From Kocuria tytonicola (GTDB taxonomy: Bacteria > Actinomycetota > Actinomycetes > Actinomycetales > Micrococcaceae): 64,000 nt of DNA. Below are positions 14,090-34,632 of the stretch, one piece after another. The position numbers and the translations under genes are program-made. The notes beneath the pieces were generated by a model. The model was not told the origin of the DNA. It saw nothing but the letters and a program-made list of their open reading frames with translations, and made no database searches. Each line of letters begins with the position of its first letter. The first letter of the stretch is position 1. Where the stretch lies: positions 1-64,000 of the forward strand of contig NZ_PHOA01000002.1 in the NCBI RefSeq assembly GCF_003687455.1, given 5' to 3'.

Positions 14090-14100
14090 GCACCTGATGA

Positions 14101-14147: not shown

Positions 14148-14241
14148 TTCCAAGAGACACGAGCCCGAACGCCGCCGAGTAACGCCCCTCCCGGCGCCAG
14201 CGGCCCCGTTCCTACGATGAAACCCGAGGAGAGTGATGACC

Positions 14242-15488: not shown

Positions 15489-15681
15489 GCTCGTTCTCCT
15501 GTCCATTGACCAACCGTGGATGGTCCCGAGTCGTGAGCGCGCGATCACCAAAGCGCGCCCAAGACTGTTTGTTCCGGTGGCGCCCGGCGCTATCTCTCTG
15601 CAGTGTGCAGTACGGGAGCGCTCCCGGCACCACCGGAACTCGATGCTCACTGGTTGACTACCTCGGGTCACCACGCCGAGC

Positions 15682-15873
15682 TCAGGGCTTGTGGTGCTCC
15701 TCGTCGGGTTTTCGGCGGTCGTGGTGGCGCTGCCACATGGTGGCCACGAGCGACCCCACGATTAGCGCCAGTGCCAGGGGAACGGGGTTGCCCACTGCCC
15801 CGAAACCTTCCGTCAAGAGCACCGCCAGGCCAAGCAGAGCCAGAACAACGGCGATGGGGTATCCGATCTTCAT
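15682..15873 (-). CDS. Small two-helix membrane protein, possible immunity partner
   Basis: A 63-residue protein with two hydrophobic segments (PIAVVLALLGLAVLL and VPLALALIVGSLVATMW) and a highly charged tail, RHHDRRKPDEEHHKP. GGAAAGG lies upstream of the ATG. It begins 55 bp downstream of the secreted-protein gene on the same strand. Small, charged-tail membrane proteins of this kind often give self-protection next to bacteriocin genes; that role is inferred from position and shape only. Confidence 0.6.
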   Translation of the reverse strand: MKIGYPIAVVLALLGLAVLLTEGFGAVGNPVPLALALIVGSLVATMWQRHHDRRKPDEEHHKP

Positions 15874-15928
15874 ACCAGAAGCCTTTCCAAAGGGTCGACC
15901 CGTCGTGAACGAGCAGACGAATCAGGAA

Positions 15929-16597
15929 CTACCGGGGCCAGCACACAACGGGACCGACGTGGGGCTTCTTGATGGAGATCCCCTTGTCATTCCAGTTGCA
16001 CAGTCCTGCGATGCCGCCGGCTGCCGCGAATGCTCCGGCAACCACACCGGCGACTCCCCCACCCAAACCGGTCCAAGACATGATTGCCGCGGCCAAGGCG
16101 CTGACGCCGGCCCCAGCGGTGAGGATCTTCTGGGCCTGGCCCACTGCGTAGTTGTCCAGCCACAGCTCCACCCCCCACCAGTGCGCCTTGAACCCGCCGT
16201 GGGAGGCCTGGGCACCGACGTGGCCATCACCGTCCCGAGTTGCAGCACCGGAATCCATCGCCTGCTTCTGATCCGCGTTGGCCTGAGAGATCGCCTTCTT
16301 CACCAGCTCCACTTCGGAGGCCGGGAAATCCTGGCCCGCCGGCAGGTTCAGCGTGTATGCCCCCTGTGCGTCGACGGTGACGTAGGGGTCGTACTTGGCG
16401 ATCAGCTTCTCGTCCAACCCCTCGACGGAGGTGACGCTCGCGTTGCCGGACGCAGCGTCCGCCGACAGCGCCTGCGAGACCGCGGCCGCCGAGGCCTGCT
16501 CAGCCGGGGCTGGCTGCGCATGGGCTGCCGGCAACGAGCCCAGAGCCACCGCGGCGGCCAGGGCAATTCCTGTCGGGTAGGTGTATGCACGCTTCAT
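15929..16597 (-). CDS. Secreted Gly/Ala-rich protein, bacteriocin-like
   Basis: A 222-residue exported protein. A signal peptide (residues ~1-31) ends at AAHA before QPAPAEQ. The middle (~35-125) is acidic and helical. The C-terminal ~85 residues begin HWWGVELWLDNYAVGQAQ, continue through a long Gly/Ala-rich hydrophobic stretch (GVSALAAAIMSWTGLGGG) and end in NWNDKGISIKKPHVGPVVCWPR-like text with two Cys. That layout (leader, acidic pro-region, small hydrophobic C-terminal domain) resembles secreted bacteriocin-like or membrane-active proteins, but I cannot assign a named family. AAGGAGCG precedes the ATG at 16597. The small membrane protein downstream may be its partner. Confidence 0.55.
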   Translation of the reverse strand: MKRAYTYPTGIALAAAVALGSLPAAHAQPAPAEQASAAAVSQALSADAASGNASVTSVEGLDEKLIAKYDPYVTVDAQGAYTLNLPAGQDFPASEVELVKKAISQANADQKQAMDSGAATRDGDGHVGAQASHGGFKAHWWGVELWLDNYAVGQAQKILTAGAGVSALAAAIMSWTGLGGGVAGVVAGAFAAAGGIAGLCNWNDKGISIKKPHVGPVVCWPR

Positions 16598-16804
16598 GAC
16601 TCGCTCCTTAATGTCTCGGACCATGAGGACAATCCCAGATTGCCACTAACACCAGAAAGACCACAAGCATCCGCCACTAACAGTGTGGATATCCAGCACG
16701 CCCCCTAGTTTGTCAATAGCCAAACGACCGGACTTTTCCTCATTACCAGTAGGCTTTTATCTCATTAACCTAAACACTCTGCTTCCCGCTCTTAGTGTTC
16801 GCCG

Positions 16805-17067
16805 TCAAGGCCAGAGCCTGGTGCGGTACTCGATGTCCCATTCCGGGTGGTTGTCCCACCTGATGCAGCTCGCTCCGCCCTCAATTTCTCCAAACTGGGC
16901 CAGGGGCGCCGCCAAGGCGTTGAGCAGCTGGTCATCCTCCCAACCGAACACCGCATTACCCGCGCACAAGGACTCCTCACCTCGTCGTGAAAGCGAAAGG
17001 TGTGTCGCTCATACCCGTCTACCGGCGGGGCGTCATCCACCAGCATGACCAGCTGACGCTGCTTCAC
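16805..17067 (-). pseudogene. Frameshifted small hypothetical gene
   Basis: Two good-looking frames meet near 16978. The first encodes MLVDDAPPVDGYERHTFRF-like sequence from GTG 17067. The second encodes NAVFGWEDDQLLNALAAPL and ends WDIEYRTRLWP before a stop at 16805-16807. A 5-nt gain within GAGGTGAGGAG would explain the shift. Joined, they make about 85 residues of unknown function. Two overlapping genes, with GAGGTGAGGAG as the ribosome-binding site of a TTG start, is the alternative. Confidence 0.4.
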
Positions 17068-17239
17068 GCCTGATGCCAGCCAGCGACGTGAGCAGCGCGA
17101 ACCCCATCAGGCGGTGGGCACCACGATCACCGACGCCGCGTGGAACCACACGAACGCGTGGGTCACGTGAAGTGAGGAGCCCTCGGCGCGCGTAGGTGAG
17201 AGTCCACCAACCGGCCGGCTCTCCACGATGCTGGACATG

Positions 17240-17282
17240 AAAAACCGGGCCTGCCTTGCGTCTCCGCAGGTCAGACCCGGTT
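17240..17282 (-). terminator. Intrinsic terminator of tRNA-Asn
   Basis: On the minus strand AACCGGG...CCTGC pairs with GGCAGGCCCGGTT and is followed by a run of T. It lies 3 bp past the tRNA 3' end and is the only hairpin I saw in the window with a clear U-tract. Confidence 0.8.
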
Positions 17283-17285
17283 CGG

Positions 17286-17361
17286 TGGCTCCCCCGACTG
17301 GACTCGAACCAGTAACCCTTCGATTAACAGTCGAATGCTCTGCCAATTGAGCTACGGGGGA
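17286..17361 (-). tRNA. tRNA-Asn (GTT)
   Basis: A 76-nt cloverleaf with encoded CCA. The acceptor stem is TCCCCCG/CGGGGGA with discriminator G; the anticodon arm is TTCGA-CTGTTAA-TCGAA with anticodon GTT; the T arm is ACTGG-TTCGAGT-CCAGT. Its 3' end points towards the accessory segment at 13.4-17.1 kb, the side on which integrating elements would lie. Confidence 0.96.
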
Positions 17362-17462
17362 ATGCACATGTTGCTGCGCAACGAGACGATACTTTACAGC
17401 CCCCGCCGGGCTTCCTCAAATCGCCCGGGCGGGCGGCCCCACGCCCCGGCGGCCGGCCGGAG

Positions 17463-22064: not shown

Positions 22065-22889
22065 TCACCTGCGGCCGACGGCGCTCCCGTCCTCCGCGCG
22101 CGCGGCACCCGCCGCGATCTGCTCCAGGCGCACCGCGAGCTTGAACGCGCGGATCTGCTCGTCCCGGCGGCCCAGGGTCTTGCACACCGCCCCGAGCTCC
22201 CGCAGGCAGGCCACCCACTCGTCCGTGTGCGCCTCGGGGTCCGGCAGTGCCGAGTACAGGTTCGAGGCGTTCTCCAGGGCGTGCGCGGCGTCGGCCCAGG
22301 CCATCCGGTCCCGTGCGAGCGCGGCAAGTCCCTGCCAGCACAGGATCTGCCCGGCGGCGTCCCGGCGGGTCTCGCACCCGCTGAGCACTGCCTCGTAGTG
22401 CTCCTCCGCGAGCTTGCGCCGCCCGGCCGCCTGCGCCGCCGTGGCCAGGTGGGAGGTCCAGCGCAGGTCCTCGCGGGTCACGAACCCGGTGCTGCCCGCG
22501 TGGGCCGGCCGGTCGGGATCCACCCCGGCCACCTCGGCGCCCTCCTGGAAAACCCGGTACGCGTCCCATGGGCGTCCCAGGGCGAGCAGCACGTCCCCGA
22601 GCTCCTCCAGGCACCGCACCCGCCCGCGCACGGAACGCGCGGTGCGCTCCGCGCGGCGGTACTGCACGGCGCCGATCCGGTAGTGGTGCTCGGCGTTGGT
22701 GAGATTCCCCGCGTCCCGTTCCAGATCCCCCAGCGACGACGCCGCGTCACCCGCCGCGCACCACGCGTCACCCAGGCGGGCGGTGCGCAGGGCGTCCTCG
22801 AACAGCGTCCGGGCCTCGACGAGGTCCCCGCGCTCACGAGCGGCGGCGGCGCGCTTGAGCCGACGGGCGGAGGTCTGCGCTGCGAACAT
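22065..22889 (-). CDS. TPR-repeat protein of unknown function
   Basis: A 274-residue, Arg/Ala-rich soluble protein made of tandem helix pairs, for example GDLVEARTLFEDALRTA, GNLTNAEHHYRIGAVQYRRA and GRRKLAEEHYEAVLSGCE, the 34-residue TPR pattern. TPR proteins bind other proteins; no enzyme domain is present. It is the first gene of the run into dusB, dgt and dnaG, with 14 bp to dusB. The start at ATG 22889 precedes the first repeat, so the frame looks complete. Confidence 0.7.
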   Translation of the reverse strand: MFAAQTSARRLKRAAAARERGDLVEARTLFEDALRTARLGDAWCAAGDAASSLGDLERDAGNLTNAEHHYRIGAVQYRRAERTARSVRGRVRCLEELGDVLLALGRPWDAYRVFQEGAEVAGVDPDRPAHAGSTGFVTREDLRWTSHLATAAQAAGRRKLAEEHYEAVLSGCETRRDAAGQILCWQGLAALARDRMAWADAAHALENASNLYSALPDPEAHTDEWVACLRELGAVCKTLGRRDEQIRAFKLAVRLEQIAAGAARAEDGSAVGRR

Positions 22890-22978
22890 GCTGGACTCCT
22901 GGAACGGTGCTGTCTACTGGCGGGCGGGCCGACCGGGAAATCTTGTCCAAGGAAGCGTATTGCCCGCACATCGGTGCC

Positions 22979-23560
22979 CTAAGATCCTAGCGCCGCCGCG
23001 GAATTTCGGGCCTGGGCAACCGGGTCAGCGGTGGAGTCGAGACGAATGGTCAGGGCGTCGAGGAGTATGCCGTTGACCAGATGGTGCAGGCGCAGGACTG
23101 CATCCCGCCCACCTGGCAGTCCACGCGAGTTGTGGAATTCGACGTCCGCCTCGAAACCCGCACGCAGGAATGCGCCCAGGGGTTCTGCGACCTCTGGGTT
23201 TCGGGCAGCTTCGAGACGTAGCTCAATCAGTGCACGCGCAAGGACAGGACGGGCCAGAAGCCGCTCCACCACATAGCCCGCATAGGCCGGTCCCGCCTCG
23301 GCAGCATCGAGGGAAGCGAGTTCTTCGAGCCGCCGCGAATCCGGAGCAAGTACCGCGAAAATTCTCTGCGCCATCCCTTCAAGCAAGTCGGAGCGAGTCC
23401 CGAAGTAGTTCGCGCAGGTTCCCGTCGGCACTCCGGCCTCAGCATCGACAGCACGGTGTGTCACTGCCCGCGCACCGTCCCGGCCAAGCAGCTGGAGCGC
23501 AGCGTCAGCGACAGCTGTACGACGGGAGGGGTTGGCGACCATGCCCGAAATCTTACGCAT
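22979..23560 (-). CDS. TetR-family transcriptional regulator
   Basis: A 193-residue repressor. The N-terminal helix-turn-helix is visible as AVADAALQLLGRDGARAVTHRAVD followed by the recognition part AGVPTGTCANYFGTRSDLLEG; the rest is an all-helical ligand-binding domain. ATG 23560 is taken as the start, with ATG 23542 as alternative. It diverges from the DHFR-like reductase gene across 58 bp, so it probably controls that gene and itself. The base composition is lower in GC than the housekeeping genes beside it, consistent with transfer. Confidence 0.8.
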   Translation of the reverse strand: MRKISGMVANPSRRTAVADAALQLLGRDGARAVTHRAVDAEAGVPTGTCANYFGTRSDLLEGMAQRIFAVLAPDSRRLEELASLDAAEAGPAYAGYVVERLLARPVLARALIELRLEAARNPEVAEPLGAFLRAGFEADVEFHNSRGLPGGRDAVLRLHHLVNGILLDALTIRLDSTADPVAQARNSAAALGS

Positions 23561-23618
23561 GACTGCCCAATGTGTGCTTTAGTGAGCAACCAGTACATCT
23601 GTAGTGATTGGAGACACC

Positions 23619-24257
23619 GTGCGAGACCTCGTGTACTACGTTGCCACTTCCATTGACGGCTACATCGCCGCCAGCGACGGCGCTTTCACCGCCTTTCCGC
23701 AGGATCCGGCCACTCTCAGGGCGCTATTCACCCGATACCCCGAGACCTGCCCTGCCCACGCAAGAGCCGCCCTGGGCATTACCGAGCCGCCCCGTCGATT
23801 CGACACCGTGATCATGGGGTACAAGACGTATGAACCCGCTCTGGCTGTTGACCTGCCGGGCGGCGCGTATCCGCACCTTCATCAGGTTGTGGCCACGCAT
23901 CGCCACCTGCCTGAGGCACTGGGCTTGACGACCATCAGCGGTGATCTGACAACGCAGGTCACCAACCTCAAGGCAGGCGCTGGACGCGACATCTGGTTGT
24001 GCGGTGGTGCGCATCTCGCCGCGCAGCTGATGGACCTCATTGATGAGATTCAGGTCAAGGTGAATCCGGTCATTCTCGGGGACGGGATACCTCTGCTGCC
24101 CAGCGCAGACGCACCACGCCCCTTTTGCCTGACTGCCATGGAAGAGCTGCCCGGAGAAGTGGCACTCCTGACCTACCGGCTTCGCCGGGATACCACGTCT
24201 CAGCGGGCTCAGCTAGGGCGTGTTTCCCAAACCCTCAGTCTGCGTCGGCAAGGGTGA
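23619..24257 (+). CDS. Dihydrofolate-reductase/RibD-C-like reductase, 3' end replaced by IS
   Basis: A 212-residue protein of the DHFR-like RibD C-terminal family: DLVYYVATSIDGYIAASDG at the N-terminus, VIMGYKTYEPAL, and a Rossmann-like DIWLCGGAHLAAQLMDLIDEI, then VNPVILGDGIPLL. Members reduce small molecules with NAD(P)H, and many are stand-alone proteins of unknown substrate. I start at GTG 23619 behind GGAGA. The last ~14 codons (from about 24216) read into the left end of an IS5-type remnant, so the native C-terminus has been replaced; the folded core looks complete. It diverges from the TetR gene. Confidence 0.75.
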   Translation: MRDLVYYVATSIDGYIAASDGAFTAFPQDPATLRALFTRYPETCPAHARAALGITEPPRRFDTVIMGYKTYEPALAVDLPGGAYPHLHQVVATHRHLPEALGLTTISGDLTTQVTNLKAGAGRDIWLCGGAHLAAQLMDLIDEIQVKVNPVILGDGIPLLPSADAPRPFCLTAMEELPGEVALLTYRLRRDTTSQRAQLGRVSQTLSLRRQG

Positions 24258-24975
24258 TCGCGTGTCGCGGTTGCAAACGCTCTCGGATGCCGAGTGGGAC
24301 TTGATCGAGGACTTCATGCCGTCTTCGGACGGGCGGCGGGGTCGTCGGTTCTCGGATCACCGGTTGGTGGTCGAGGGGATCATCTACCGCTACCGGACCG
24401 GCTTCGCGTGGCGGGACCTGCCTGCGGAGTTCGGTGCGTGGCAGACGGTGCGGAAGCGACACCGCCGCTTCGCGGGCGACGGGGCCTGGGACAAGGTCCC
24501 GACGGCCTTGTTGACCAGGGCAGACGCTAGGGGCGAGATCGATTGGGATGTTGCGGTCGACTCCACCATTGCGCGCCCACCAGCACGCGACGAACACTAG
24601 GCGCCTCGCGGGGGCTCCATCGAATTACGTGATGCAGATGCTCGAGCCGGCGGATCATGCGATCGGACGATTGCGCGGCGGACTGTCGACGAAGGTCCAT
24701 CAGTTGTGCGACGGCAACGGACGTCCCATCGGCATCGCGGTTGGGCCGGGGCAAGGCAGCGACTCGAAGATGTTCCCGTACCTGCTCGCTGCGGTTCGGG
24801 TTCCGCGCGAAGGGGCGGGGCGTCCTCGCACCACCCCTGATGCGGTGTTGGCAGACAAGGCGTACTCCTCGGGAGCTCACCGGACTCTGCTGCGCAGTCG
24901 AGGGATCACAGCCGTGATCGCTGAACCGCGGGACCAGCAGGCGAACCGGAAACGGCTTGGTTCTCGTGGCGGGTG
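24217..24975 (+). mobile_element. IS5-type insertion sequence, truncated
   Basis: The left end appears to lie where the DHFR-like gene loses homology (around GGGCGTGTTTCCCAAA). The transposase homology ends abruptly at GSRGG, about 24975, where a full element would continue through the last third of the DDE domain. No matching right inverted repeat is present before the next IS at 25052. It is a dead remnant. Confidence 0.7.
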
Positions 24976-25018
24976 CCCCCCGTTACCTTTTTCGTGGCGC
25001 CTTCCTCCGGGAGGATGA
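24262..25018 (+). pseudogene. IS5-family transposase, frameshifted and truncated
   Basis: The first frame (from GTG 24262) gives the N-terminal domain (SDAEWDLIEDFMP, YRYRTGFAWRDLPAEFG, VAVDST). The second frame, shifted by one base, resumes at LRAHQHATNTRR and carries GRLRGGLSTKVHQL and VLADKAYSSGAHR. The shift falls at ATTGCGCGCC near 24571. Some IS5-group elements use programmed frameshifting, but no slippery run is present here and the 3' third, with the final catalytic Glu, is gone. It is non-functional. Confidence 0.75.
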
Positions 25019-25085
25019 GGGCGTAGGTAGCCAGCCGGTCCCGGCATGATTGGGGCTGCCGCACGAACAGGTGACAGTTGGGGTG

Positions 25086-25946
25086 TCAGGCCGCGAGGCT
25101 CACGGCCGGGTTCATGATGGTCTCGTATTCGATAGGGGTCAATCGACCGAAGCGGGCCTGCCGGCGACGGCGGTGGTAGGTCCGCTCAATCCAGGTGATG
25201 ATCGCGATTCGGAGCTCTTCTCGGGTCCGCCAGCGCTTGCGGTCCAGGACGTTCTTCTGCAGCAGCGAGAAGAAGGACTCCATCGCGGCGTTGTCGCCAG
25301 CGGCGCCGACTTTCCCCATCGAGCCCACGAGGTGATGACGGTTCAGAGCGTGCACGAACTTCCGTGACCTGAACTGGGACCCTCTGTCCGAGTGGACGAT
25401 GCAGCCAGCGGCGTCGCGACGCCGGGATATCGCGTTGTCCAGGGCGTTCACCGCGAGGTGGGCCTTCATCCTGCCGCTGATCGAGTAGCCGACGATCCGG
25501 CCGGAGAACACGTCCTTGATGGCGCAGAGGTAGAGCTTGCCCTCTTCTGTCCAGTGCTCGGTGATATCGGTCAGCCAGAGTTCGTTGGTGTCCTCAGCGG
25601 AGAAGTCACGCTTCACGAGATCATCGTGGACCGGCGGCCCGGGGCGCTTCCCGTTCTTGCCGCACTTCTTGCCGAACACGGACCACCACTGATTGTCCCG
25701 GCAGATCCGCCACGCGGTCCGCTCGCACATGCGCTGGACAGCGGCCTCCGCTTCGCCGACCAGGAACCGATACCCGAACTCGGGATCATCGCGGTGGGCG
25801 TCGAACAACGCGTTCGCCCGGTGGGCCTCGACCAGGTCAGACTCCGTGACCTGTTGTTTTCGCCATCGGTAGTAGGGCTGGCGGGAGAGCTTCAGGACCC
25901 GCAGGGACACCGCGACGGGGATACCGTCGGCAGCGAGCTCATTCAC
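25086..25946 (-). CDS. IS3-family transposase OrfB (DDE integrase domain)
   Basis: A 286-residue integrase-core protein, normally made as the C-terminal part of an OrfAB fusion. The HTH_21-like start is KLSRQPYYRWRKQ; the catalytic acids are in LWLTDITEHW (D), CIVHSDRGSQF (D) and GDNAAMESFFSLLQKN (E), all intact. The last residues GRLTPIEYET are the usual IS3 ending. Frame overlap with OrfA at 25943-25946 and an A4 run (complement of 25961-25964, GGGAAAATCC) fit -1 slippage, giving LPGK-ILYPLVNELA. Confidence 0.9.
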   Translation of the reverse strand: MNELAADGIPVAVSLRVLKLSRQPYYRWRKQQVTESDLVEAHRANALFDAHRDDPEFGYRFLVGEAEAAVQRMCERTAWRICRDNQWWSVFGKKCGKNGKRPGPPVHDDLVKRDFSAEDTNELWLTDITEHWTEEGKLYLCAIKDVFSGRIVGYSISGRMKAHLAVNALDNAISRRRDAAGCIVHSDRGSQFRSRKFVHALNRHHLVGSMGKVGAAGDNAAMESFFSLLQKNVLDRKRWRTREELRIAIITWIERTYHRRRRQARFGRLTPIEYETIMNPAVSLAA

Positions 25947-26251
25947 GAGCGGGTAGAGGATTTTCCCGGCAGGTTCACCTGCGAGAGATACGCAGCGGCG
26001 CGGCGCAAGACCTCGTTCTCCTGCTCCAGCAGCCGGATCCGCTTACGCGCATCACGCAGCTCGGAGGACTCCTCGCGCGACTTGCCGGGACGGTTGCCGT
26101 CGTCGATGTCGGCTTGGCGGATCCATTTATGCAGCGTCATCTCGTGAACGCCGAAGTCCTTCGCGATCTGCGCGATCGTGACGCCATCCTCACGGGACCG
26201 GGCCACACGCACGACATCGTCGCGGAACTCTCGGGGATATGGAGCGGGCAT
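25943..26251 (-). CDS. IS3-family transposase OrfA
   Basis: A 102-residue OrfA that binds the element ends. Its HTH_Tnp_1 domain reads YPREFRDDVVRVARS...TIAQIAKDFGVHEMTLHKWI, followed by a leucine-zipper-like coiled coil (RDARKRIRLLEQENEVLRRAAAYL). I start at ATG 26251. The four final codons overlap the 5' end of OrfB in another frame, as expected for a programmed -1 fusion. Confidence 0.9.
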   Translation of the reverse strand: MPAPYPREFRDDVVRVARSREDGVTIAQIAKDFGVHEMTLHKWIRQADIDDGNRPGKSREESSELRDARKRIRLLEQENEVLRRAAAYLSQVNLPGKSSTRS

Positions 26252-26320
26252 GGTGCACATCCTTCCAGGCCGCCCTACGGGCAAGCCAGATCAGATGTCA
26301 CATATCCGTACAGCAGCCCC

Positions 26321-26344
26321 GTATTTCGTATTTAGACGAAATAC
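26321..26344. promoter_or_regulatory. Perfect inverted repeat, probable operator of the HTH gene
   Basis: GTATTTCG and CGAAATAC flank an 8-nt spacer (TATTTAGA). TATACT, a good -10 box, follows at 26348-26353, and the start codon is at 26360 with no ribosome-binding site between, which suggests a leaderless transcript. The repeat lies where a -35 box should be, so the encoded HTH protein could repress itself. It begins one base after the IS3 end. Confidence 0.6.
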
Positions 26345-26359
26345 GTATATACTTTCCTT

Positions 26360-26680
26360 ATGAATCAGAGCCTTGCCCGGCCAACCCCTGCAGAGCCGGT
26401 GAGTTCACTCGCCGAAGTGCTGTCGGCGCTTGGGAACCCTGTACGACTGGCTGTCGTTGTTGAAGTCGCCACCCGAGGCCCCCTCTCCCCCGGGGAGATC
26501 CAGGTAGACGTCGCAGCATCCACCCTCAGCCAGCACCTGGGCGTTCTACGTCGTGCTGGAATCATTCGCCAGGAGACAGTCGGCCTTCGACGCCCCTGCC
26601 ACCTGCGCCGCAAGGAGCTCTCCGCAGGGCTTCCAGGCCTGCTCGATTGCGTGCTTGAACTCGCCGAAGGAAGCCACTGA
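26360..26680 (+). CDS. Small ArsR-type winged-helix regulator
   Basis: A 106-residue winged-helix protein: SLAEVLSALGNPVRLAVVVEV, then LSPGEIQVDVAASTLSQHLGVLRRAG (helix-turn-helix) and IIRQETVGLRRPCHLRR (wing). There is no obvious metal-binding Cys pair, so a metal sensor is unlikely. The ATG follows a promoter and a palindrome directly, and the stop shares one base with the methyltransferase start (TGATG), so both are one operon. A small autoregulated HTH protein ahead of a methyltransferase recalls controller proteins of restriction-modification systems; this is inference. Confidence 0.8.
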   Translation: MNQSLARPTPAEPVSSLAEVLSALGNPVRLAVVVEVATRGPLSPGEIQVDVAASTLSQHLGVLRRAGIIRQETVGLRRPCHLRRKELSAGLPGLLDCVLELAEGSH

Positions 26681-28584
26681 TGCCCCCCAACCGATCACTG
26701 CTGGAGTCCAACTTCCCCTTCGTCGACATCTCTCGCCTAGTCGCCGCAGATCGACGAGCCCCAGACCCGGCCTACCAGGCGCACCGCTGGTTCGCACGAC
26801 GACCGCCAGCCCTTATCCGTGCCACCCTTCTTGCCGCGACCCGCGATCACGAATCGTCGATCGACTCGTTCTGGGCGGATTACGCTCAGCCAGACCATCA
26901 CCTCATCGGCACGCATGTCCTCGACCCCTTCATGGGTGGTGGCACCACCCTGCTCGAAGCTTCTCGCCTCGGAGCCGGCGTCGATGGGCAGGACGTCGAC
27001 CCGATGTCCGTAGAGCTCAATCGCCATCTTCTGACACCACCGTCCCGGGACGCGGTCGCGGAGGCGGGCAGTCAGCTCATCGCTCACCTCGAGCGTTCTA
27101 TGGGGTGGCTATGGCCCTCGACGGAAACGGACAGCGAGTCGTGGCAGGCGCTGCACTATTTTTCGCTAGCGAAGGTCACCTGCCCCGGGTGCGACAGCAT
27201 GGATCTGCTCTACCGAACACCCGTGCTGGCACGGAGTATCGGATGCCGCGGAGCCGTCGTCCGTGACTCGGCAGTCGATGCGTTCTGCCCTGAATGCTTG
27301 TCGCTGCATAGCCTTCCGGCGGACTCGCAAGAACTGATGTGCTGTGACCGGAAGTGGCCGCTTGACCAAGGCACGTTCCGGGCGGGCCGATACCGTTGCC
27401 CAACCTGTGGCCTGGCAAGCTCTCACGAGCGCCTCCAGACGGGCACCGCGCCGCGGACCGTGGTCGCCGTGGAAGAGACTCCCCCAGGGCGAGGGCACCG
27501 TCGCCTCAGGGCTCCCTACGACAGCGACGCTCCGAGCATCACAGTCCCCGACAATGCGGTGCTGGGGCTCGAGATCGAGGTGGGGCACGACCGCCGGCCC
27601 GTGTCGTACGGAATCAAGACGATCCGCGACCTGCACACTGATCGCCAACTCGCCTACCTGCTCGAAGCCATGTCCTGGATCAAGAGGGAAGTCCACAGCC
27701 CCCCGCTGGGCCGGGCCCTACGTCTGGCCGTGTCGACCTCGATCACGAGCAATAACCGCCTTTGCGGGTACGCCACGGACTACGGGCGCTTGGCACCCCT
27801 CTTCAGTGTCCGCGCCTTCGCGCTTCCCGCCCTCACTGTCGAACTCAACCCCCTACACACATCTGGAGGCCGAGGCACTCTGCGGGCGGCGCTTTCGAGG
27901 GTGGCCGCCTCTTGCTCGAACGAAGTACGCAGGAACGTGCTCCGTGGCGAAACTGTGACGCCCGAGCGCATGGCACTCGCAAGGTCTGCCGGGACCGTTG
28001 CGCCGGGTGACTCGGTAAAGGAAATTCACAGCACCCCGGCTGCGGACCTGTGCCTGACGGACCCGCCCTACTTTGACTTCATCCCCTACGACACTCTCAG
28101 TCAGGTGTTCCGTGCCTGGCTCGCCGGTCGGGATCTCGCGGGAGAACCCGTCCTGCCAGCCGGAGATGATCCCGTGCAACACTTCGCCCAGCTCCTGGGG
28201 ACGGCTCTGGCCAACGCATCCAAGGCCTGCGTGCCCGGTGCGCTTGTGGCCTTTACCTTCAAAGGCGGAGAGCAGGGCTGGTCCGGCGTCGCCGGTGGAC
28301 TCAGGCTCGCGGGCCTGCGCGTTACGGCGCTGTGGCCTGTCTTGGCCGACCCAGGCATGGGACATCACTCGGGAGCAGGCAACTGCGAATTCGACATGCT
28401 CGTTGTGTGCCGGCCCGCTCCAGTGTGTGAACCGGCCCCCGCGCATTTCGACCCCTCGGCCTGGGCGCGCGCCGTCTCGAATTGGCGACCGCTGTCGGAG
28501 ACGGACCGGCGACACATGATCCTGGCCGCCAAGTCTCTCTCGCCCCTGCGAGCCGTTATGACCAGCGCAACTCCATCGGCCTGA
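26680..28584 (+). CDS. DUF1156-like adenine-type DNA methyltransferase
   Basis: A 634-residue DNA methyltransferase with separated motifs. The N-terminus (NFPFVDISRLVAADRR...HRWFARRPPALIRATLL) resembles DUF1156 proteins. The SAM-binding motif is VLDPFMGGGTTLLEA near residue 80, and the catalytic DPPY motif is CLTDPPYFDFIPYD near 460. Between them are zinc-ribbon-like pairs: CPGC (~168), CPEC (~204), CPTC (~241). DPPY points to N6-adenine or N4-cytosine modification. It is co-transcribed with the small HTH protein and converges on a large nuclease-helicase, overlapping it by 29 bp at the 3' end. I infer the modification arm of a defence system; target sequence unknown. Confidence 0.8.
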   Translation: MPPNRSLLESNFPFVDISRLVAADRRAPDPAYQAHRWFARRPPALIRATLLAATRDHESSIDSFWADYAQPDHHLIGTHVLDPFMGGGTTLLEASRLGAGVDGQDVDPMSVELNRHLLTPPSRDAVAEAGSQLIAHLERSMGWLWPSTETDSESWQALHYFSLAKVTCPGCDSMDLLYRTPVLARSIGCRGAVVRDSAVDAFCPECLSLHSLPADSQELMCCDRKWPLDQGTFRAGRYRCPTCGLASSHERLQTGTAPRTVVAVEETPPGRGHRRLRAPYDSDAPSITVPDNAVLGLEIEVGHDRRPVSYGIKTIRDLHTDRQLAYLLEAMSWIKREVHSPPLGRALRLAVSTSITSNNRLCGYATDYGRLAPLFSVRAFALPALTVELNPLHTSGGRGTLRAALSRVAASCSNEVRRNVLRGETVTPERMALARSAGTVAPGDSVKEIHSTPAADLCLTDPPYFDFIPYDTLSQVFRAWLAGRDLAGEPVLPAGDDPVQHFAQLLGTALANASKACVPGALVAFTFKGGEQGWSGVAGGLRLAGLRVTALWPVLADPGMGHHSGAGNCEFDMLVVCRPAPVCEPAPAHFDPSAWARAVSNWRPLSETDRRHMILAAKSLSPLRAVMTSATPSA

Positions 28585-31500
28585 CATCTGCGCCCGTTTG
28601 GAAGGTGACGGTTCTGGTGTTCGCGCACACCTCGGTGACGAACCGCTTCATCATCGAGCTGTTGTCAAGCACCTTCAGATCGGAGGCTAGATGGTCTACC
28701 AGTGTGCGCGCCATGATAACGATGAGCTTGGTCTCCGGCCGCGAGGCTGTGACGTTGAATCGGTTCAGTGACTGGAGGAACTCTTCTTCGCCTGCAATCA
28801 CGTCCGGGTCTCCCACGCCGTATGAAGCGATGATGATCTCCCTTTGCTGGCCTTGGAAGTGCTCCACGGTGTCGACTGTCTTGCCGAGGATTTCGAGGTC
28901 CGCCGTGGGCCACAGCCGCGCTAGCCGGGACGTTATCGCCGAACGCTGCGCGCGATGCGGCGTGACAATGCCTAGACCGCTGTTGAGGAAATCCTCGAGG
29001 TCGAGCGAGCCGGCACTTGGTTGGCTGCTGGCAGCTAGACGCGCATCGAGCAGGTGTGCCAGGGCGACGACGAGGGAGGCCTCCATCTCGTTGGACTGGC
29101 CGGACAGCTCGTCGTCATGCAGGAGACAGACCACAGGGGTCTCGGGGTCGAGTAGCGTCGCGTAGTCGTCGCTCCAGGGGAGATCGGCCGGCCAATCGTG
29201 GGGGCGGGAAGTGGGCACAGGCGAAGCCAGGGCCAGTCGCTTGCCTGGAGTGTGGGCCGTCAGCTCGAGTGGATAGCCCGCAATCTTGAAGGCCTCAATG
29301 ATTTCGCTATTCGAGCGATAGTTGATCAACAGTTTCTGCTCGCCGACTCCCCGTTGCATGACGAGGAACTCGTAAAGGCTGCCGACCATGTGCTCAAGCC
29401 CCACAGGCGGCGCAACCTGACTGATCGGGGCCAGCTGAAGCTTGTCGCCCGCCACCACCACCGTGCTTTTCTCAGCCATCGAGATGAGGGAAACGATCGA
29501 AGAGGCAACATCAACTTGGCTTGCCTCGTCGACGACCACGACGTCGAACTGGACATCCTGACGAAGCTTCCTATTCCTGCTCCTGCCGCCCTCGGTGAAG
29601 ACGAGCTTGTGGACCTGGTGCGGGTTCGCGGCGACGATTGTGACGTCGTTCCTACCTGGCGCCAGTCGGGCCCGCAACCGATCGGTGTCTTCGTCCGTGC
29701 CGTGGGAGGTGCAGCAGGCAATGACCGGGGCGGGCATAGGCGCCCTACCCTCGCTCTGGAGCCGCCACAGCTCGACGTCGGGCACCATGTTGGGAAGGAA
29801 TCCAGCGACAGACTTCAACACGTTGTCTGTGGCATCGTAGGTGTTGGCCGTCAGCAGGATTCGCACGCCCTCGCCCTTGCCTTTGGCGTCCAGGACGGCC
29901 CCAGCGAGGATCCGCGACAGTGTGCGGCTCTTCCCGGTCCCTGGCGGCCCCCAGATCACGCTGAGACGGTGGGTGAGTGCGTGCTCGACCGCAGCCCACT
30001 GGTTGTCGTCAAGGGTCTGACGAGCCGCTTCAAGCTCGTGTCGCAGATAAGGCACGTTGCGAGCAACGGCGGTGCCAGCCATGGCCGCGCTGTCCCAAAT
30101 GAGGTCCTCCACCGGCACACGCGGCGTGGACCTAACGTTGCTGGAATTGCCAGTGGCCGTTGACGACATCATGTGGTCGAGCGCCTTGGGGGTCTTGCCG
30201 ATGGCCATCAGCGTCGTCTTCAGCCGCCCGGACATGATGTCGACGGAGAGCTTTTCCAGGCTAGTCGCTCCCGTCAAATCAATGAGCCCGGCATCCATCA
30301 GTCGCCTGCGCCAACGGGCTCCGTCCTTATACTCGACGCCCTTGACAGCAAGTAAGCCCTTTGTCCGGTCCATCCCCACGATGTCGACCCCGAGCACTTT
30401 GTCCATGGTCAGGTACGCCACCCCTGCGGCCTGAGCATCTCTCAGCAGCCCTGCTGCGGTTGCCCCCCGCCTCTGCAGGTAGTAGTCGAACCGCTGAGTG
30501 AGTAGTTCAGTGTGATCCTCCGGCACGATGGCGCACGCGAACTCGCCCTCGCTGAACTTCGCATCCCGACTGGCCTCGGCGATCCGATAAATCTCGATCT
30601 CCGGGCCCGACAGTTCAAGCTGGACCATCGCATTGTCCCGGTCGGCTCCGACCAGCAGCTCGCTGAGGCGGGCGGATTCGAAGGACGCTTCTCGCTCAGA
30701 CGCGGTTAGCGCATGAATAGCAGACACCGCCTGCGATGCTACTGCCGCCTTGAGCTTGGTGTGTGCATACCAGAGAAGCTCATCAGAGGTCATCTTGCCG
30801 GGGTTATCGAGAGCCTTCAGGTACTTGACCTTTGGCGCCCACCTCCGCAGGCCGTTCCGGGCGCCGAGGTCTTCGCGAAGCCGCTCACGCACAGCCTGCA
30901 ACGCAGACAACTGCGTTAACGTCATCTTGAAAGCCTGCTGTTGGACGCGCGCACTCCCGCTGGCCTGCTTCCATTTTTCGTGGGCGCGCTCACTGGGAAT
31001 CTGGCTAGAGAACGGATCCTCCCACAGATCTGTGGGAGGGGCGAAACCATGGGCGCTTCCGTAGGCCTCCGAACTGTGGTAATCACGAGCGGTGGAGAGC
31101 AGTGAGTAGTAGAACGGGGTGCGCGTAGCCAGCAACGAGTCCACAGGTTGGTTTACGACACAAATTGCTGGCTCAAGGACCAGTCGGGCGTTGGCGAGGA
31201 TCTCTTCTGGCGGGAACAACCAAGCCAGGCTTTTCGCTCCTCCCGGCTGGGCGAGGACCGCATCCAGGTGGCGGCCAACGACCCTGCAGATATGGTCGTA
31301 AGTCAGCTGGTCCCAGACATAAACCTGCAGAGAAGCATTCTCGTCGTGTTTGCGAACCTTTTCGACGAATCTGCCAATTTTTGCGAGAAAATTGATGACC
31401 CTCGTCTGCTCCTCGTCGATTTCCCGGCGCTCGACAATCTCGACAACACGGAACGATATTGGCTCGGCGAGCCGGTTATTTCGGGTGCCGGAATATATAC

Positions 31501-32788
31501 CGTCGGCACCGAGGGTGAACGTGATTGCTGTCGACGAGTCGAAGTTGGCAACAACGTGGATCTGCGCGTCCGCCCATCGAGGCAGGGAGGCGGTAGCGAT
31601 GTTGCCCGGGATGAGGCTTGCGTCACCGTCCGAGCGGATCCGGTCGGCTCTATCGACCGTCACGCTCCGACGCCCTCGGAGGCTGTGGTGCTCGTCGAAC
31701 ACTTCATCAGAGGCTGTGGTGACGTCTGCGACGGTCTGGACCGAATTGCGGTCTAGAACTCCCGCTGCGCCCCGGCTCAGTCTAGGGATGCGAGATAAGT
31801 GATCGCGCACCTCCGTGGTGGGGATGCACGAGTTCGGCGAGGGTGGCTGTGCGTTGGACCACCTCATACCCAGGTAGTCACAACCACGGCACAGAGCGTT
31901 GACGTGAAAGGGAAGAGCCTGCCAGTCGGGTTCGTCCATCGCTTTCGGCAGGTGCTCACCGAAAAATTTCTGTAACGAGTGGACAAGAACTGCGGGCTGA
32001 GCAATAACAAGGTCCTTCTCCACTGAGCCCAGAACTTCGCCGGGCGTCAGCTTTCTACCCTCGGTCGCGGCGTAGAGAGCAGTCTGGTGAAGGGTGCTTC
32101 CGACATGGGAACCCGGCCAGATGCCCGGGTCAGCTCGCACTAGGAATTCTTGCTGCAATGACTGGTCCTCAAGCCAACCAGCGAGGGCAACGGCGTAGAA
32201 GACGGCCTCCATAAGGTATCCGGTACCAGGGTCTTCATTGAGCTTGATGTCGAGGATGCGCAGCTGCCGGCGATTGTCGCTCTTCAGGATCGGTCGCATG
32301 CCCCCATCGGAGAGCACCTCGTTGCCTTCCGAGCCAGGCTCCATGACAAAGATGAGGTCTGGCCGTAGCTTGGTGAACTCGATCGTGTGGCCTGCCTGGC
32401 TGAGAACAGGAAAATGGCGCCGAAAGGTTTGCCCCACGCTGTATTCGTGTTCGACCAGCACCTGCGATGGCGCGGTCCGAGCAAGGCCGGCCTGCGTGAT
32501 CGGGATGTTCTGGTAAGTGGTCTTACCGGCGGATGAGACGGCGTGTTCTTCGACGACGAAACCGGCGGGCAGTTGTTGTATGAGGTCCTCCACACAAGTG
32601 TTGGCCCATTCCTCTCCGGCTGCGGCGCGGTCTGTAAGGCCCGGGCGGGGGTGCTTCTCTGGCATTGCATCGAGCCCCGACTGCTGCTTGCGGGCCGGCT
32701 CTGGAACTAGATTGATTCTCAGCTGTCGAAGGCAACTCGACGAGAGGAATGCAGTCATTGCCTGCTTGCTGATCTTGTAGGTGTTCAT
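28556..32788 (-). CDS. RecB-like nuclease fused to SF1B (DNA2/NAM7-type) helicase
   Basis: A 1410-residue protein. The N-terminal ~350 residues look like a TM0106/Cas4-type RecB nuclease: SSSCLRQLRI near 18, LRPDLIF (~138), the D-x-K core ILDIKLN (~180), a YLMEAVFYAVAL helix and CRGCDYLG...SC for a possible Fe-S cluster. The C-terminal ~500 residues are a superfamily 1B helicase: Walker A GPPGTGKS (~945), Walker B VVVDEASQVD, GDKLQLAPI, INYRSN, VDTVEHFQGQQREIIIAS and a motif VI variant NVTASRPETKLIVI. The ~550 residues between are unrecognised. ATG 32788. It faces the methyltransferase convergently. Likely role: DNA processing or restriction in an anti-phage module. Confidence 0.8.
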   Translation of the reverse strand: MNTYKISKQAMTAFLSSSCLRQLRINLVPEPARKQQSGLDAMPEKHPRPGLTDRAAAGEEWANTCVEDLIQQLPAGFVVEEHAVSSAGKTTYQNIPITQAGLARTAPSQVLVEHEYSVGQTFRRHFPVLSQAGHTIEFTKLRPDLIFVMEPGSEGNEVLSDGGMRPILKSDNRRQLRILDIKLNEDPGTGYLMEAVFYAVALAGWLEDQSLQQEFLVRADPGIWPGSHVGSTLHQTALYAATEGRKLTPGEVLGSVEKDLVIAQPAVLVHSLQKFFGEHLPKAMDEPDWQALPFHVNALCRGCDYLGMRWSNAQPPSPNSCIPTTEVRDHLSRIPRLSRGAAGVLDRNSVQTVADVTTASDEVFDEHHSLRGRRSVTVDRADRIRSDGDASLIPGNIATASLPRWADAQIHVVANFDSSTAITFTLGADGIYSGTRNNRLAEPISFRVVEIVERREIDEEQTRVINFLAKIGRFVEKVRKHDENASLQVYVWDQLTYDHICRVVGRHLDAVLAQPGGAKSLAWLFPPEEILANARLVLEPAICVVNQPVDSLLATRTPFYYSLLSTARDYHSSEAYGSAHGFAPPTDLWEDPFSSQIPSERAHEKWKQASGSARVQQQAFKMTLTQLSALQAVRERLREDLGARNGLRRWAPKVKYLKALDNPGKMTSDELLWYAHTKLKAAVASQAVSAIHALTASEREASFESARLSELLVGADRDNAMVQLELSGPEIEIYRIAEASRDAKFSEGEFACAIVPEDHTELLTQRFDYYLQRRGATAAGLLRDAQAAGVAYLTMDKVLGVDIVGMDRTKGLLAVKGVEYKDGARWRRRLMDAGLIDLTGATSLEKLSVDIMSGRLKTTLMAIGKTPKALDHMMSSTATGNSSNVRSTPRVPVEDLIWDSAAMAGTAVARNVPYLRHELEAARQTLDDNQWAAVEHALTHRLSVIWGPPGTGKSRTLSRILAGAVLDAKGKGEGVRILLTANTYDATDNVLKSVAGFLPNMVPDVELWRLQSEGRAPMPAPVIACCTSHGTDEDTDRLRARLAPGRNDVTIVAANPHQVHKLVFTEGGRSRNRKLRQDVQFDVVVVDEASQVDVASSIVSLISMAEKSTVVVAGDKLQLAPISQVAPPVGLEHMVGSLYEFLVMQRGVGEQKLLINYRSNSEIIEAFKIAGYPLELTAHTPGKRLALASPVPTSRPHDWPADLPWSDDYATLLDPETPVVCLLHDDELSGQSNEMEASLVVALAHLLDARLAASSQPSAGSLDLEDFLNSGLGIVTPHRAQRSAITSRLARLWPTADLEILGKTVDTVEHFQGQQREIIIASYGVGDPDVIAGEEEFLQSLNRFNVTASRPETKLIVIMARTLVDHLASDLKVLDNSSMMKRFVTEVCANTRTVTFQTGADVRPMELRWS

Positions 32789-32809
32789 CCAAGGAGCCTC
32801 TCGTTCACG

Positions 32810-33085
32810 TTACTGGTGATATAAGTTGTATTGCCAAGCACATGGCGCCTGGCTCAGCTCCGAGAGCCTGGCCCTCATAGTAGTTGAGCCCCCAGGAACG
32901 AGGGCTTCACCGTGGTCGATGCGGTCCTGTTTCCACCAGTTCCGCTGGGTACGGGGAGAGATCCCGCCATGTGCTTCTCCCACGGCGGTGTAGGCAACCC
33001 ATCCCGAGCACTGCTCCGCACGGACTCGCTCCTCGATGAGCTCCAGGGCACGGGCCTTGAATTCGGAGCTGTAGTTCTGAGACAT
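32810..33085 (-). pseudogene. IS3-family OrfA remnant
   Basis: A 91-codon frame whose first ~65 residues match an IS3-type OrfA helix-turn-helix (SSEFKARALELIEERVRAEQ...ISPRTQRNWWKQDRIDHGEA). Homology stops at about 32880, after which the frame is unrelated sequence. There is no OrfB and no recognisable inverted repeat. It is unrelated in sequence to the IS3 at 25-26 kb and marks the right edge of the accessory island, next to galK. Confidence 0.65.
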
Positions 33086-33267
33086 GTTCTGATCCTCCTT
33101 GAGGAAGCATGTCGGAACGAAACCCAGAGCTCTTCAGGTGGGGCGTTGTCTGCAACCGCAACTACTGCTGATGAACATCCGGATCTCGCCAGAATGGTCT
33201 CCCCAGTGCCCCTGCCGGGGTACCGGCCCACGTCACGAACCGCTTGCTCAACTGCTCCCGGAACACG

Positions 33268-34632
33268 TCAGCGGACCCGGCGCCCGGCGGGCGACGGGTT
33301 CAGGGTCAGGAACAGAGGGTCGCGGAAGCCGTGGTCTGAAAACGCCGAGCACACGGAGTCGGCCAGCTCGTCCAGCGCGTCCTCCCGGGCCAGGGCGATC
33401 ACGGAACCGCCGAAGCCGCCGCCCACCACCTTGGCACCCAGGGCGCCGGCGGCCAGGCACGCGGTCACGGCGGTGTCGAGCTCGGGGACGGTGACCTGGC
33501 AGTCGCGGCGCATGGACTCGTGGCCGGCCACGAGCAGGCGGCCCACGAGCGACCAGTCCGGGTCCGGGGAGGAGAGCTGGTCCGCTATGCGCACCGAGCG
33601 GACCATCTCCGTCAGGGAGTGGCGCAGCCGCAGCCGCACACCTTCCGGGTTGCCGCGCAGGGTGACCCCGGAGGAGACGAGGTCGTCGAAGCGTTCGAGG
33701 ACCGCGGCCGCGTCGTCCTCGGTGGGGTGCTCCGGCAGGGCGTCGCGCAGGCGGGCCACGCCCAGGACGGCGGCCGCGGCCTCGCACTCGTCCCGGCGGG
33801 AGCTGTACTGGCCGTCCGCGAGCCGGTGCGGGGCGCGCGTGTCCACCGCGAGCCACGTGAGACCGGCGGCGGAGGGATCGGCGGGCAGGTGGGTGGCGTC
33901 GAAGTCGCGGCAGTCCAGGGCGATCATCTCGCCCGCGTGCGAGCGCAGGGAGGCGGTCTGGTCCAGGCCGCCCGTGTTGGCGCCCACGATGTAGTTCTCG
34001 GCATCCATGCACGCGCGCGCGAGGGCGCGGCGGTGGGCGTCGTCGGGGTCGTCCTCGCCCGTGTGCAGCGAGTGCAGCGCGAGCGCCACGGAGCACTCCA
34101 GGGCCGCGGAAGAGGCGAGTCCGGCGCCGATGGGCACGGTGGAGTCCACCATGAGGTCCGCGCCGAACTCCGCGGGCAGGGCGAGCTCCGGTACGGCCAC
34201 CGGGTGCGCGGAGGCGCCCGCGGCCACACGGTTCATGCCCCAGGCGACGCCGGCGGCGTACCCGAACCAGCCGCTGATCCCCCCGGGGGCGATCTGCCCC
34301 ACGCGGGTCTCCCGCAGCCGGTGGTCCGCCACGGACTCGTCCGCGTCCTGCAGGGACAGCGCCCGCAGCACCCCGTCCGTGCGCGGTGCGGCGGCGGTGA
34401 GGGTCACGTACTGGTGCGCGAACGGCAGGCACATCCCGCCCGAGAAGTCGATGTACTCCCCCATGAGGTTGGCGCGCCCGGGCGCGGCCCACACCCCCGC
34501 CGGCGCGCGGCCGTAGGCCCGCTCGAAGCGCTCGCCCAGCTCCCGTGCCCGGGCGGCGACGTCCGGCTGGGGCACCCACTGCGGGCACCCGGCTTCCTCC
34601 GGCGGGGCGACGACGCTGGCTTCACAGGACAC
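33268..34632 (-). CDS. galK: Galactokinase
   Basis: A 454-residue GHMP kinase that phosphorylates galactose to galactose-1-phosphate. The galactokinase signature GRANLMGEYIDFSGG (family: GRVNLIGEHTDYNGG) is near residue 55, the GHMP loop is STVPIGAGLASSAALECSVA, and the C-terminal motif is GAKVVGGGFGGSVIAL. The substitution of the usual HTDY by YIDF is notable, since those residues contact sugar. I start at GTG 34632, with GAGGA 8-9 nt upstream. It follows the sugar transporter by 55 bp. No galT or galE is in the window. Confidence 0.88.
   Translation of the reverse strand: MSCEASVVAPPEEAGCPQWVPQPDVAARARELGERFERAYGRAPAGVWAAPGRANLMGEYIDFSGGMCLPFAHQYVTLTAAAPRTDGVLRALSLQDADESVADHRLRETRVGQIAPGGISGWFGYAAGVAWGMNRVAAGASAHPVAVPELALPAEFGADLMVDSTVPIGAGLASSAALECSVALALHSLHTGEDDPDDAHRRALARACMDAENYIVGANTGGLDQTASLRSHAGEMIALDCRDFDATHLPADPSAAGLTWLAVDTRAPHRLADGQYSSRRDECEAAAAVLGVARLRDALPEHPTEDDAAAVLERFDDLVSSGVTLRGNPEGVRLRLRHSLTEMVRSVRIADQLSSPDPDWSLVGRLLVAGHESMRRDCQVTVPELDTAVTACLAAGALGAKVVGGGFGGSVIALAREDALDELADSVCSAFSDHGFRDPLFLTLNPSPAGRRVR

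What the first reader, a model, noticed from the sequence alone, without database searches (positions are those of the whole stretch)
26360..32788. Candidate anti-phage module: small HTH controller, DUF1156-like methyltransferase and convergent nuclease-helicase
A methyltransferase with separated SAM and DPPY motifs and zinc ribbons is led by a small HTH protein and faces a 1410-residue protein that joins a TM0106/Cas4-like RecB nuclease, ~550 unrecognised residues and an SF1B helicase. The set lies between IS elements, in lower-GC DNA. It matches no defence system I can name exactly (not DISARM: no DUF1998 or PLD gene; not BREX: no PglZ or BrxC). Inference: methylation marks self DNA and the nuclease-helicase degrades unmarked DNA.
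Basis: partly seen in the sequence, partly recalled or inferred. Interest (0 to 1): 0.78.

Follow-up and report, generated by a model that had tools for sequence, protein, structure and literature searches.

The report
Methylase paired with Cas4-type nuclease-helicase
A DNA-methylating enzyme and a large DNA-cutting, DNA-unwinding enzyme travel together as a mobile gene pair in very different microbes, which looks like an undescribed kind of restriction-modification defence, although no activity has been tested.

Summary
At 26360-32788 lie an ArsR-type HTH gene, a 634-aa DNA methyltransferase (MTase) and, convergent and overlapping it by 29 bp, a 1410-aa protein: an N-terminal Cas4/AddB/Dna2-type nuclease with intact catalytic residues and four iron-sulfur-type cysteines, a DEDD-exonuclease-fold domain lacking its catalytic Glu, and an SF1 helicase. 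A search with the nuclease-helicase alone found 42 genome loci in many phyla. All 36 with a full-length core ORF carry a related MTase within 3 kb, in three gene orders; in two further loci a beta-class MTase takes its place. The core is rare: 1 of 295 sampled genomes of the family, 7 of 396 of the phylum (plus one weak match). It lies in a ~10.4-kb island missing from that site in three relatives; elsewhere it occurs on plasmids, near phage-type genes, or beside other defence genes. I read it as a mobile, ATP-dependent, restriction-modification-like module. Family libraries recognise only its helicase part well, and ten open-access literature searches found no description. The HTH is local, not conserved. 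Methylation, cutting and phage protection remain inferred.

The parts
22891..33268 (.). Accessory island of about 10.4 kb between a TPR-protein gene and galK; absent at the same site in three relatives
   Evidence: in L085, L086, L087 the match ending at window 22,888-22,903 is followed 9-118 bp later by the match starting at 33,268-33,270; a fourth relative (L084) matched only the galK side and is uninformative
26320..26345 (.). 10-bp perfect inverted repeat with 6-nt spacer, 14 bp before the HTH start: candidate operator
   Evidence: the only site over 55% A+T among 25 inverted-repeat hits (arm >=9, spacer <=10) in the window; such a repeat arose in 0.12% of 5000 simple shuffles of the 76-nt segment
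26360..26680 (+). ArsR-type HTH protein, 106 aa; probable local regulator, not a conserved part of the module
   Evidence: HTH_20 1.3e-9; one weak match, phmmer 0.0013, several kb from the L054 core; none beside the pair
26680..28584 (+). DNA methyltransferase, 634 aa: motif I DPFMGGGTT, central Cys-rich region, motif IV TDPPYF
   Evidence: (N6_N4_Mtase 1e-4, below cut-off)
28556..32788 (-). Nuclease-helicase core, 1410 aa
31739..32788 (-). Cas4/AddB/Dna2-type nuclease domain (residues 1-350): D144, D180, K182, Y198; C19, C300, C303, C321
   Evidence: same residue in 49-51 of 51 rows; pLDDT 87; Cas4 Z 12.3; AddB 8.6; Exo5 8.4; Dna2 8.2
30839..31576 (-). DEDD 3'-5' exonuclease-fold domain (about residues 405-650), catalytic D-x-E lost: D417 kept 51/51, residue 419 is G/S/A in 51/51
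   Evidence: (Z 9.9-13.2 over the rows shown)
28589..30022 (-). SF1 helicase (residues about 923-1400): Walker A GPPGTGK, DEAS, GDxxQ, TPH, QG, SR motifs
   Evidence: AAA_11/12/19/30; IGHMBP2-type 2.8e-30; DpdJ helicase part 6.3e-47
24220..25018 (+). IS4/IS5-type transposase in two ORFs, left side of the island
   Evidence: DUF4096, DDE_Tnp_1
25086..26284 (-). IS3-type transposase ORF pair just left of the HTH gene; 98% identical DNA elsewhere in the genome over 25358-26320
32810..33085 (-). IS-like fragment right of the module (no Pfam hit; overlaps repeated DNA)

Best explanation
A mobile two-gene, ATP-dependent restriction-modification-like defence module. The MTase methylates a motif in the cell's own DNA. 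The large protein acts on unmethylated incoming DNA, translocating and unwinding it with its SF1 helicase and cutting it with its Cas4-type nuclease; the degenerate exonuclease-fold domain serves as a DNA-handling or regulatory platform. Shown: conserved pairing across phyla, intact catalytic residues, island/plasmid/phage-gene-associated location, exchange of MTase class. Inferred: methylation, its protective effect, cleavage, antiviral role.
For: Pairing: 39 of 42 genome loci found with the core alone carry the family MTase (38, plus the L033 edge fragment). Of the other three, L058 and L062 end inside the core and L061 has a broken core. All 36 full-length core ORFs have it: 32 complete, 3 cut by contig ends, 1 split over two frames; in 34 it is directly adjacent, in L039 and L066 1-2 ORFs lie between. 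Pairing survives three gene orders (19 upstream co-directional, 17 downstream convergent, 2 downstream co-directional). In L124 and L073 a beta-class MTase sits directly upstream instead. Core and MTase distances correlate: Spearman 0.92 for 18 short-MTase loci, 0.55 for 19 long. Catalytic residues are conserved; the nuclease fold is Cas4. Distribution is sporadic with an empty site. Neighbours match 351 PADLOC families at E<=1e-10 (112 proteins) against 43 for 110 matched-control proteins. In the two loci with both sides visible and no MTase, the core is broken: L061 lacks residues 1-207, L020 is frame-broken.
Against: No activity data. Distance correlation in the long clade is moderate, near-identical rows inflate the short one, and shared descent alone gives some correlation. 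In L032 the core is full-length but the MTase reading frame is split (a MAG, so possibly sequence error). Cores are also broken in L044 and L060 with an intact MTase, so decay is not confined to MTase loss. No target-recognition domain was identified in the core, so how it tells methylated from unmethylated DNA is unknown. PADLOC neighbour counts are redundant families, not proteins; the control also gave hits (mad3, mad8, AriA, PD-T4-6, RtcR). No isolate phage in the collection carries a full core.
Confidence: 0.72

Rival explanations
1. Type III-like obligate complex: the MTase is also the site-recognition subunit, and the nuclease-helicase acts only when recruited by it. This is a mechanistic sub-case of restriction-modification.
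For: The core has no recognised target-recognition domain. The long MTases carry a large Cys-rich insert between motifs I and IV that could read DNA. MTase and core co-vary.
Against: Convergent arrangement in 17 of 38 loci is unlike a mod-res operon (recalled). Beta-class MTases of permuted motif order pair with the same core family, which makes one specific protein interface harder.
Confidence: 0.35
2. Selfish addiction or stabilisation module of mobile elements, kept by post-segregational killing rather than by antiviral benefit.
For: Plasmid and phage-gene-associated locations, rarity, and broken cores where the MTase is missing.
Against: Not exclusive with restriction. Defence-rich neighbourhoods fit antiviral use as well.
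Confidence: 0.2
3. DNA repair or replication-fork nuclease of Dna2 type with an associated epigenetic regulator, not a defence system.
For: Domain order (FeS-type nuclease then SF1 helicase) and nuclease fold resemble Dna2; AddB and Exo5 score alike.
Against: No match in 294 of 295 sampled family members and 388 of 396 sampled phylum members; island, plasmid and phage-gene contexts; constant MTase partner.
Confidence: 0.1
4. BREX-related/Hma (DUF499-DUF1156-helicase) or DISARM fragment.
For: MTase hits HmaB 1.5e-13 and DUF1156_MTase 3e-8 in PADLOC; a 27%-identical relative sits in what reads as a DISARM-like cluster with helicase and PLD genes.
Against: No DUF499, DUF1998 or PLD domain in the ten flanking ORFs scanned or in the module; the pair is conserved in 36 of 36 full-length loci.
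Confidence: 0.05

Closest known systems
Type III restriction-modification (Mod/Res)
   Same: Two proteins: a DNA MTase and a large ATP-dependent helicase-nuclease.
   Different: The motor is SF1 of AAA_11/AAA_12 type, not the ResIII SF2 type (recalled); the nuclease is N-terminal and Cas4-type, not a C-terminal endonuclease (recalled); MTases of different classes pair with the core.
Dna2 / AddB Cas4-type nuclease-helicases
   Same: FeS-type nuclease of the same fold (Z 8.2-8.6) in one protein with an SF1-type helicase; nuclease-first order as in Dna2 (order recalled).
   Different: Extra degenerate DEDD-fold domain; constant MTase partner; accessory gene, not housekeeping.
TM0106 family RecB-like putative nuclease (TIGR03491)
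   Same: 11 of 32 members match the model (best 1.8e-5); a Cas4-like nuclease followed by an exonuclease-fold domain is the expected layout (recalled).
   Different: The window protein itself scores no hit; the exonuclease-fold domain lacks its Glu; MTase partner.
UvrD-Cas4 fusions next to type III RM or Dcm/Vsr (PMC5704561)
   Same: Cas4-like nuclease fused to an SF1 helicase beside DNA MTases (passages read).
   Different: Those use UvrD-like 3'-5' helicases and pfam12705 nucleases and were taken as ancillary to other systems; here the helicase family and the partner differ.
BREX-related/Hma systems (PMC12839542)
   Same: That paper describes MTases with a recognition insert (Cys4 zinc finger in type-3 BREX) and DUF1156 in the BREX-related ones (passages read); the MTase here has a Cys-rich insert and weak matches to them.
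   Different: No DUF499 ATPase gene found; different helicase-nuclease partner.

Membership tests
Restriction-modification system (functional class) | DNA MTase encoded next to a nuclease | tested here: met
   36 of 36 full-length cores have an MTase within 3 kb, 34 directly adjacent
Restriction-modification system (functional class) | Sequence-specific methylation protects from the nuclease | not testable with these tools
   Needs methylome and restriction assays
Type III RM | Res subunit with SF2 ResIII-type motor | tested here: not met
   Pfam gives AAA_11, AAA_12, AAA_19, AAA_30 and weaker ones; ResIII is not among the ten families listed at E<=1
Type III RM | MTase acts as recognition subunit of a complex | not tested
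   No complex was predicted
BREX-related / Hma | DUF499 (BrxC-like) ATPase gene in the cluster | tested here: not met
   Ten flanking ORFs scanned give TetR, RibD_C, transposases, galK, TPR and sugar transporter or nothing; no DUF499; module proteins neither
BREX-related / Hma | DUF1156-type MTase | tested here: inconclusive
   Pfam DUF1156 E 0.03; HmaB 1.5e-13 partial; NF042963 2.4e-13, 49 bits against a 1000-bit cut-off
DISARM | DUF1998 protein (DrmB), DrmA helicase, PLD protein (DrmC) | tested here: not met
   None among the ten flanking ORFs and three module proteins scanned with Pfam; no DISARM model among the 16 PADLOC families of the core (the MTase list was cut at 25 of 36)
BREX | PglZ and BrxC | tested here: not met
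   None among the proteins scanned with Pfam
Cas4-type (FeS PD-(D/E)XK) nuclease superfamily | Fold plus D-DxK catalytic set and four FeS-type Cys | tested here: met
   Z 12.3 to Cas4; D144 51/51, D180 49/51 (E in 2), K182 51/51, Cys 50-51/51; the metal cluster itself is not testable here
TM0106 family (TIGR03491) | Match to the model | tested here: inconclusive
   11 of 32 relatives at E<=0.1, not the window protein
Active DEDD 3'-5' exonuclease | D-x-E motif | tested here: not met
   Residue 419 is G 33, S 16, A 2 of 51

The most novel reading that the evidence does not exclude
A widespread, undescribed type of ATP-dependent restriction-modification system. Its effector is a Dna2/AddB-like nuclease-helicase with a built-in catalytically dead exonuclease domain that may act as the modification or DNA-end reader. 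One effector family works with three kinds of MTase (long Cys-rich, short, and beta-class), so self-recognition is partly decoupled from effector ancestry.
Probability: 0.4. Interest if true: 0.78.

Novelty: new variant of a known kind. Interest (0 to 1): 0.62.

Why it matters
If true, it adds a compact two-gene restriction-modification architecture found across many bacterial phyla (and a partial core in one archaeal MAG), with an effector unlike the SF2 motors of type I and III enzymes (recalled). It would also give a natural experiment in how one nuclease-helicase family learns self from non-self when paired with methyltransferases of different classes. The two plasmid records seen call the parts 'AAA domain-containing protein' or 'AAA family ATPase' and 'DNA methyltransferase', so the system is easily missed.

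Tried and rejected
First gene maps suggested that L031 and L046 lack the MTase, and the tree carries that label ('none') for them. That was an artefact of my greedy ORF picker: tblastn and ORF checks found open MTase frames there and in L121 and L123; L065 has only a truncated one. The counts in this report are, not from the earlier maps or notes.

I tested the HTH as a conserved component and rejected it: one weak match (phmmer 0.0013, in L054, several kb from the pair) and no other among neighbour ORFs; generic ArsR hits on plasmids.

I looked for isolate phages with a core (query: the Bradyrhizobium homologue): only one partial helicase match in 50,697 records. 'Phage-associated' therefore rests on IMG/VR contigs, on lysozyme and tail-type genes beside L048 and on tail-type genes beside L049, not on isolate phages. 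A viral scan with the window MTase found nothing.

Foldseek gave no match at E<=0.001 for either model; the folds come from VIA-align on Foldseek's candidates, a second look and not a full search. No solved structure matches residues 1-915 by sequence except a chance hit at E 0.8.

In the genus, 9 of 27 genomes including the window's own gave some match to the core at E<=0.001; the other eight are short helicase-motif matches, which I did not count as the family.

Literature searches (ten in all, open-access PMC only) gave no description of this pair in what was listed; one search held 297 papers of which 20 were listed. I read passages of PMC12839542, PMC5704561 and PMC11090510; the rest only as listings. 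Absence from subscription papers, most preprints or newer defence-system tools is not shown.

Rows dropped: L058, L062 and L065 from the tree. L020, L044 and L061 were not in the residue alignment, which did include the partial L058, L062 and L065. G505 (weak hit, E 6.8e-20) was not counted as a family member. L069 equals L048 and L070 equals L075 in core sequence. The defence-neighbour test used 20 of the 42 loci, up to six nearest genes each, with my own gene caller. Eight of the nine MTase queries come from these loci; that the MTases are related to one another is shown separately.

Full report
What is there. The three ORFs are real and at the stated coordinates. The HTH is an ArsR-type protein (HTH_20 1.3e-9). 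The second is a DNA MTase with motif I (DPFMGGGTT) from residue 82 and motif IV (TDPPYF) from 460. Between them lies a Cys-rich region with pairs C168/C171, C203/C206, C221/C222 and C240/C243, invariant among the five sequences aligned. Pfam calls it only weakly (N6_N4_Mtase 1e-4, below cut-off; DUF1156 0.03). The best NCBIfam and PADLOC matches are partial (DUF1156_antiphage 2.4e-13, HmaB 1.5e-13). The 1410-aa protein is convergent with it and the two genes overlap by 29 bp. GC falls to 0.59-0.65 across the module.

Anatomy of the large protein. An AlphaFold model of residues 1-350 (31-row alignment, pLDDT 87) aligns best with Cas4 (7mi5, Z 12.3, rmsd 3.1, 195 residues), then at Z 8-9 with AddB (8.6), Exo5 (8.4) and Dna2 (8.2). 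In 51 aligned sequences D144, K182 and Y198 are invariant, D180 is D in 49 and E in 2, and C19, C300, C303 and C321 are kept in 50-51: the layout of an iron-sulfur Cas4/AddB/Dna2-type nuclease. A model of residues 1-915 (32 rows, pLDDT 87) shows a DEDD 3'-5' exonuclease fold at about 405-650, matching family-B polymerase proofreading domains and RNase T at Z 9.9-13.2. The first catalytic Asp (D417) is invariant, but the residue two on, where the motif has Glu, is Gly, Ser or Ala in all 51. The domain is therefore probably not an exonuclease, although it keeps its own invariant residues (E460, Q488, W492, R506, E600, R601). Residues 923-1400 carry a complete SF1 helicase motif set, nearest in family models to IGHMBP2-type helicases (2.8e-30) and to the helicase part of DpdJ (6.3e-47). 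The first 915 residues of the window protein have no Pfam or NCBIfam match at E<=0.1, and the best PADLOC stretch listed there is a weak one (Cas3d, 0.012); 11 of 32 relatives hit TIGR03491, TM0106 family.

Conserved pairing. I searched GTDB genome contigs with a core-only alignment, without any MTase information: 42 loci, by record title from Actinomycetota, Pseudomonadota, Myxococcota, Chloroflexota, Planctomycetota, Nitrospirota, Spirochaetota, Acidobacteriota and Bacteroidota, among others, plus a partial core in an archaeal MAG (L058). tblastn with nine family MTases finds a family MTase in 38 of 42 at E<=1e-15. A 39th (L033) shows the MTase C-terminus at the contig edge. Of the other three, L058 and L062 end inside the core and L061 has a broken core. 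A full-length core ORF is present in 36 of 42; all 36 have the MTase, complete in 32, cut by contig ends in 3, and split over two frames in 1 (L032). The aligned ends lie within about 100 bp of the core in 36 of 38; L039 and L066 have 2.6 and 1.3 kb between. Orders are: upstream co-directional 19, downstream convergent 17, downstream co-directional 2. The window belongs to a small clade with L026 and L039 (support 99, but long branches) with the long MTase downstream and convergent. MTases of all orders are related; the window's is 53% and 51% identical to those of L039 and L026. Among 8 viral contigs, 7 have the family MTase. The eighth, L073, and the unnamed Actinomycetota genome G468 (L124) instead have a beta-class MTase (SPPYW before DPF.GS) directly upstream. 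Core and MTase distances correlate (Spearman 0.92, n=18 short, 0 of 2000 permutations as high; 0.55, n=19 long, 1 of 2000).

Decay pattern. The two loci where both sides are visible and no MTase is found have broken cores: L061 has lost residues 1-207, which hold most of the nuclease active site, and is frame-broken; L020 is frame-broken. L065 has a truncated core and a truncated MTase. Against a strict rule, L044 and L060 have a broken core with an intact MTase, and L032 an intact core with a split MTase. This fits, weakly and with small numbers, a nuclease that is tolerated only with its MTase.

Mobility and defence context. Full-length cores occur in 1 of 27 genomes of the genus (eight others have only short helicase-motif matches), 1 of 295 of the family and 7 of 396 of the phylum, plus one weak match. 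In a sample of the class of the Shinella genome it was 1 of 385, the centre genome itself. Of four relatives compared, three have the TPR gene next to galK without the island of about 10.4 kb; the fourth was uninformative. Two full-length homologues (28-29% identity) lie on plasmids with a convergent MTase. L048 sits beside phage lysozyme and tail-type genes and L049 beside tail-type genes, both beside a ResIII helicase with a TnsA-like nuclease domain. In 20 of the 42 loci, 112 neighbour proteins (core and MTase excluded) match 351 PADLOC families at E<=1e-10, the first listed being type I MTases, GajB and a DRT helicase. 110 proteins from distant stretches of the same contigs match 43, led by mad3, mad8 and AriA. 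These are counts of redundant families, not of proteins.

The HTH. No relative lies beside the pair at any other locus, so it is not part of the conserved module. Upstream of it is a 10-bp perfect inverted repeat with a 6-nt spacer (26320-26345), the only AT-rich repeat of that strength in the window, arising in 0.12% of simple shuffles of that segment. It begins where the match to the other IS3 copy ends. A plausible reading, by inference, is that the HTH represses its own promoter and, through the coupled start, the MTase.

Interpretation. The best-supported reading is an ATP-dependent restriction-modification-like defence module. It is not filed as type III RM, BREX, BREX-related/Hma or DISARM, because defining features tested were not met. 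How the core senses methylation is open; a type III-like complex with the MTase and an end- or fork-loading Dna2-like mode are both compatible. Ten literature searches found no description (listed in Tried and rejected), within an open-access library only.

Noticed in passing
L048 3028-7948 and L049 5280-7949: A gene for a ResIII-type helicase with a TnsA-like nuclease domain lies directly upstream of the core, preceded in L048 by a large N6_N4 MTase gene: a second RM-like unit clustered with this one, next to phage-type genes.
   Followed up: partly
window 22979-24257: The island also carries a TetR regulator and a RibD_C-domain reductase gene; whether they arrived with the module is unknown.
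   Followed up: partly
window 25358-26320: IS3-type element with 98% identical DNA on another contig of the same genome, so probably recently active.
   Followed up: partly
window 13000-17400: Second lower-GC stretch (0.62-0.68) ending near a tRNA-Asn gene (17286-17361); its ORFs were listed but not searched: possible tRNA-linked island.
   Followed up: no
L027, L029, L030, L032, L034, L037: Nearly identical cores in MAGs assigned to Myxococcota, Chloroflexota, Thermodesulfobacteriota, Planctomycetota and Nitrospirota (end branches 0.013-0.037): recent inter-phylum transfer or MAG contamination.
   Followed up: no
L046 12451-17400: Core with its own MTase lies beside what reads as a type I RM (hsd-like) cluster (read by eye).
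   Followed up: no
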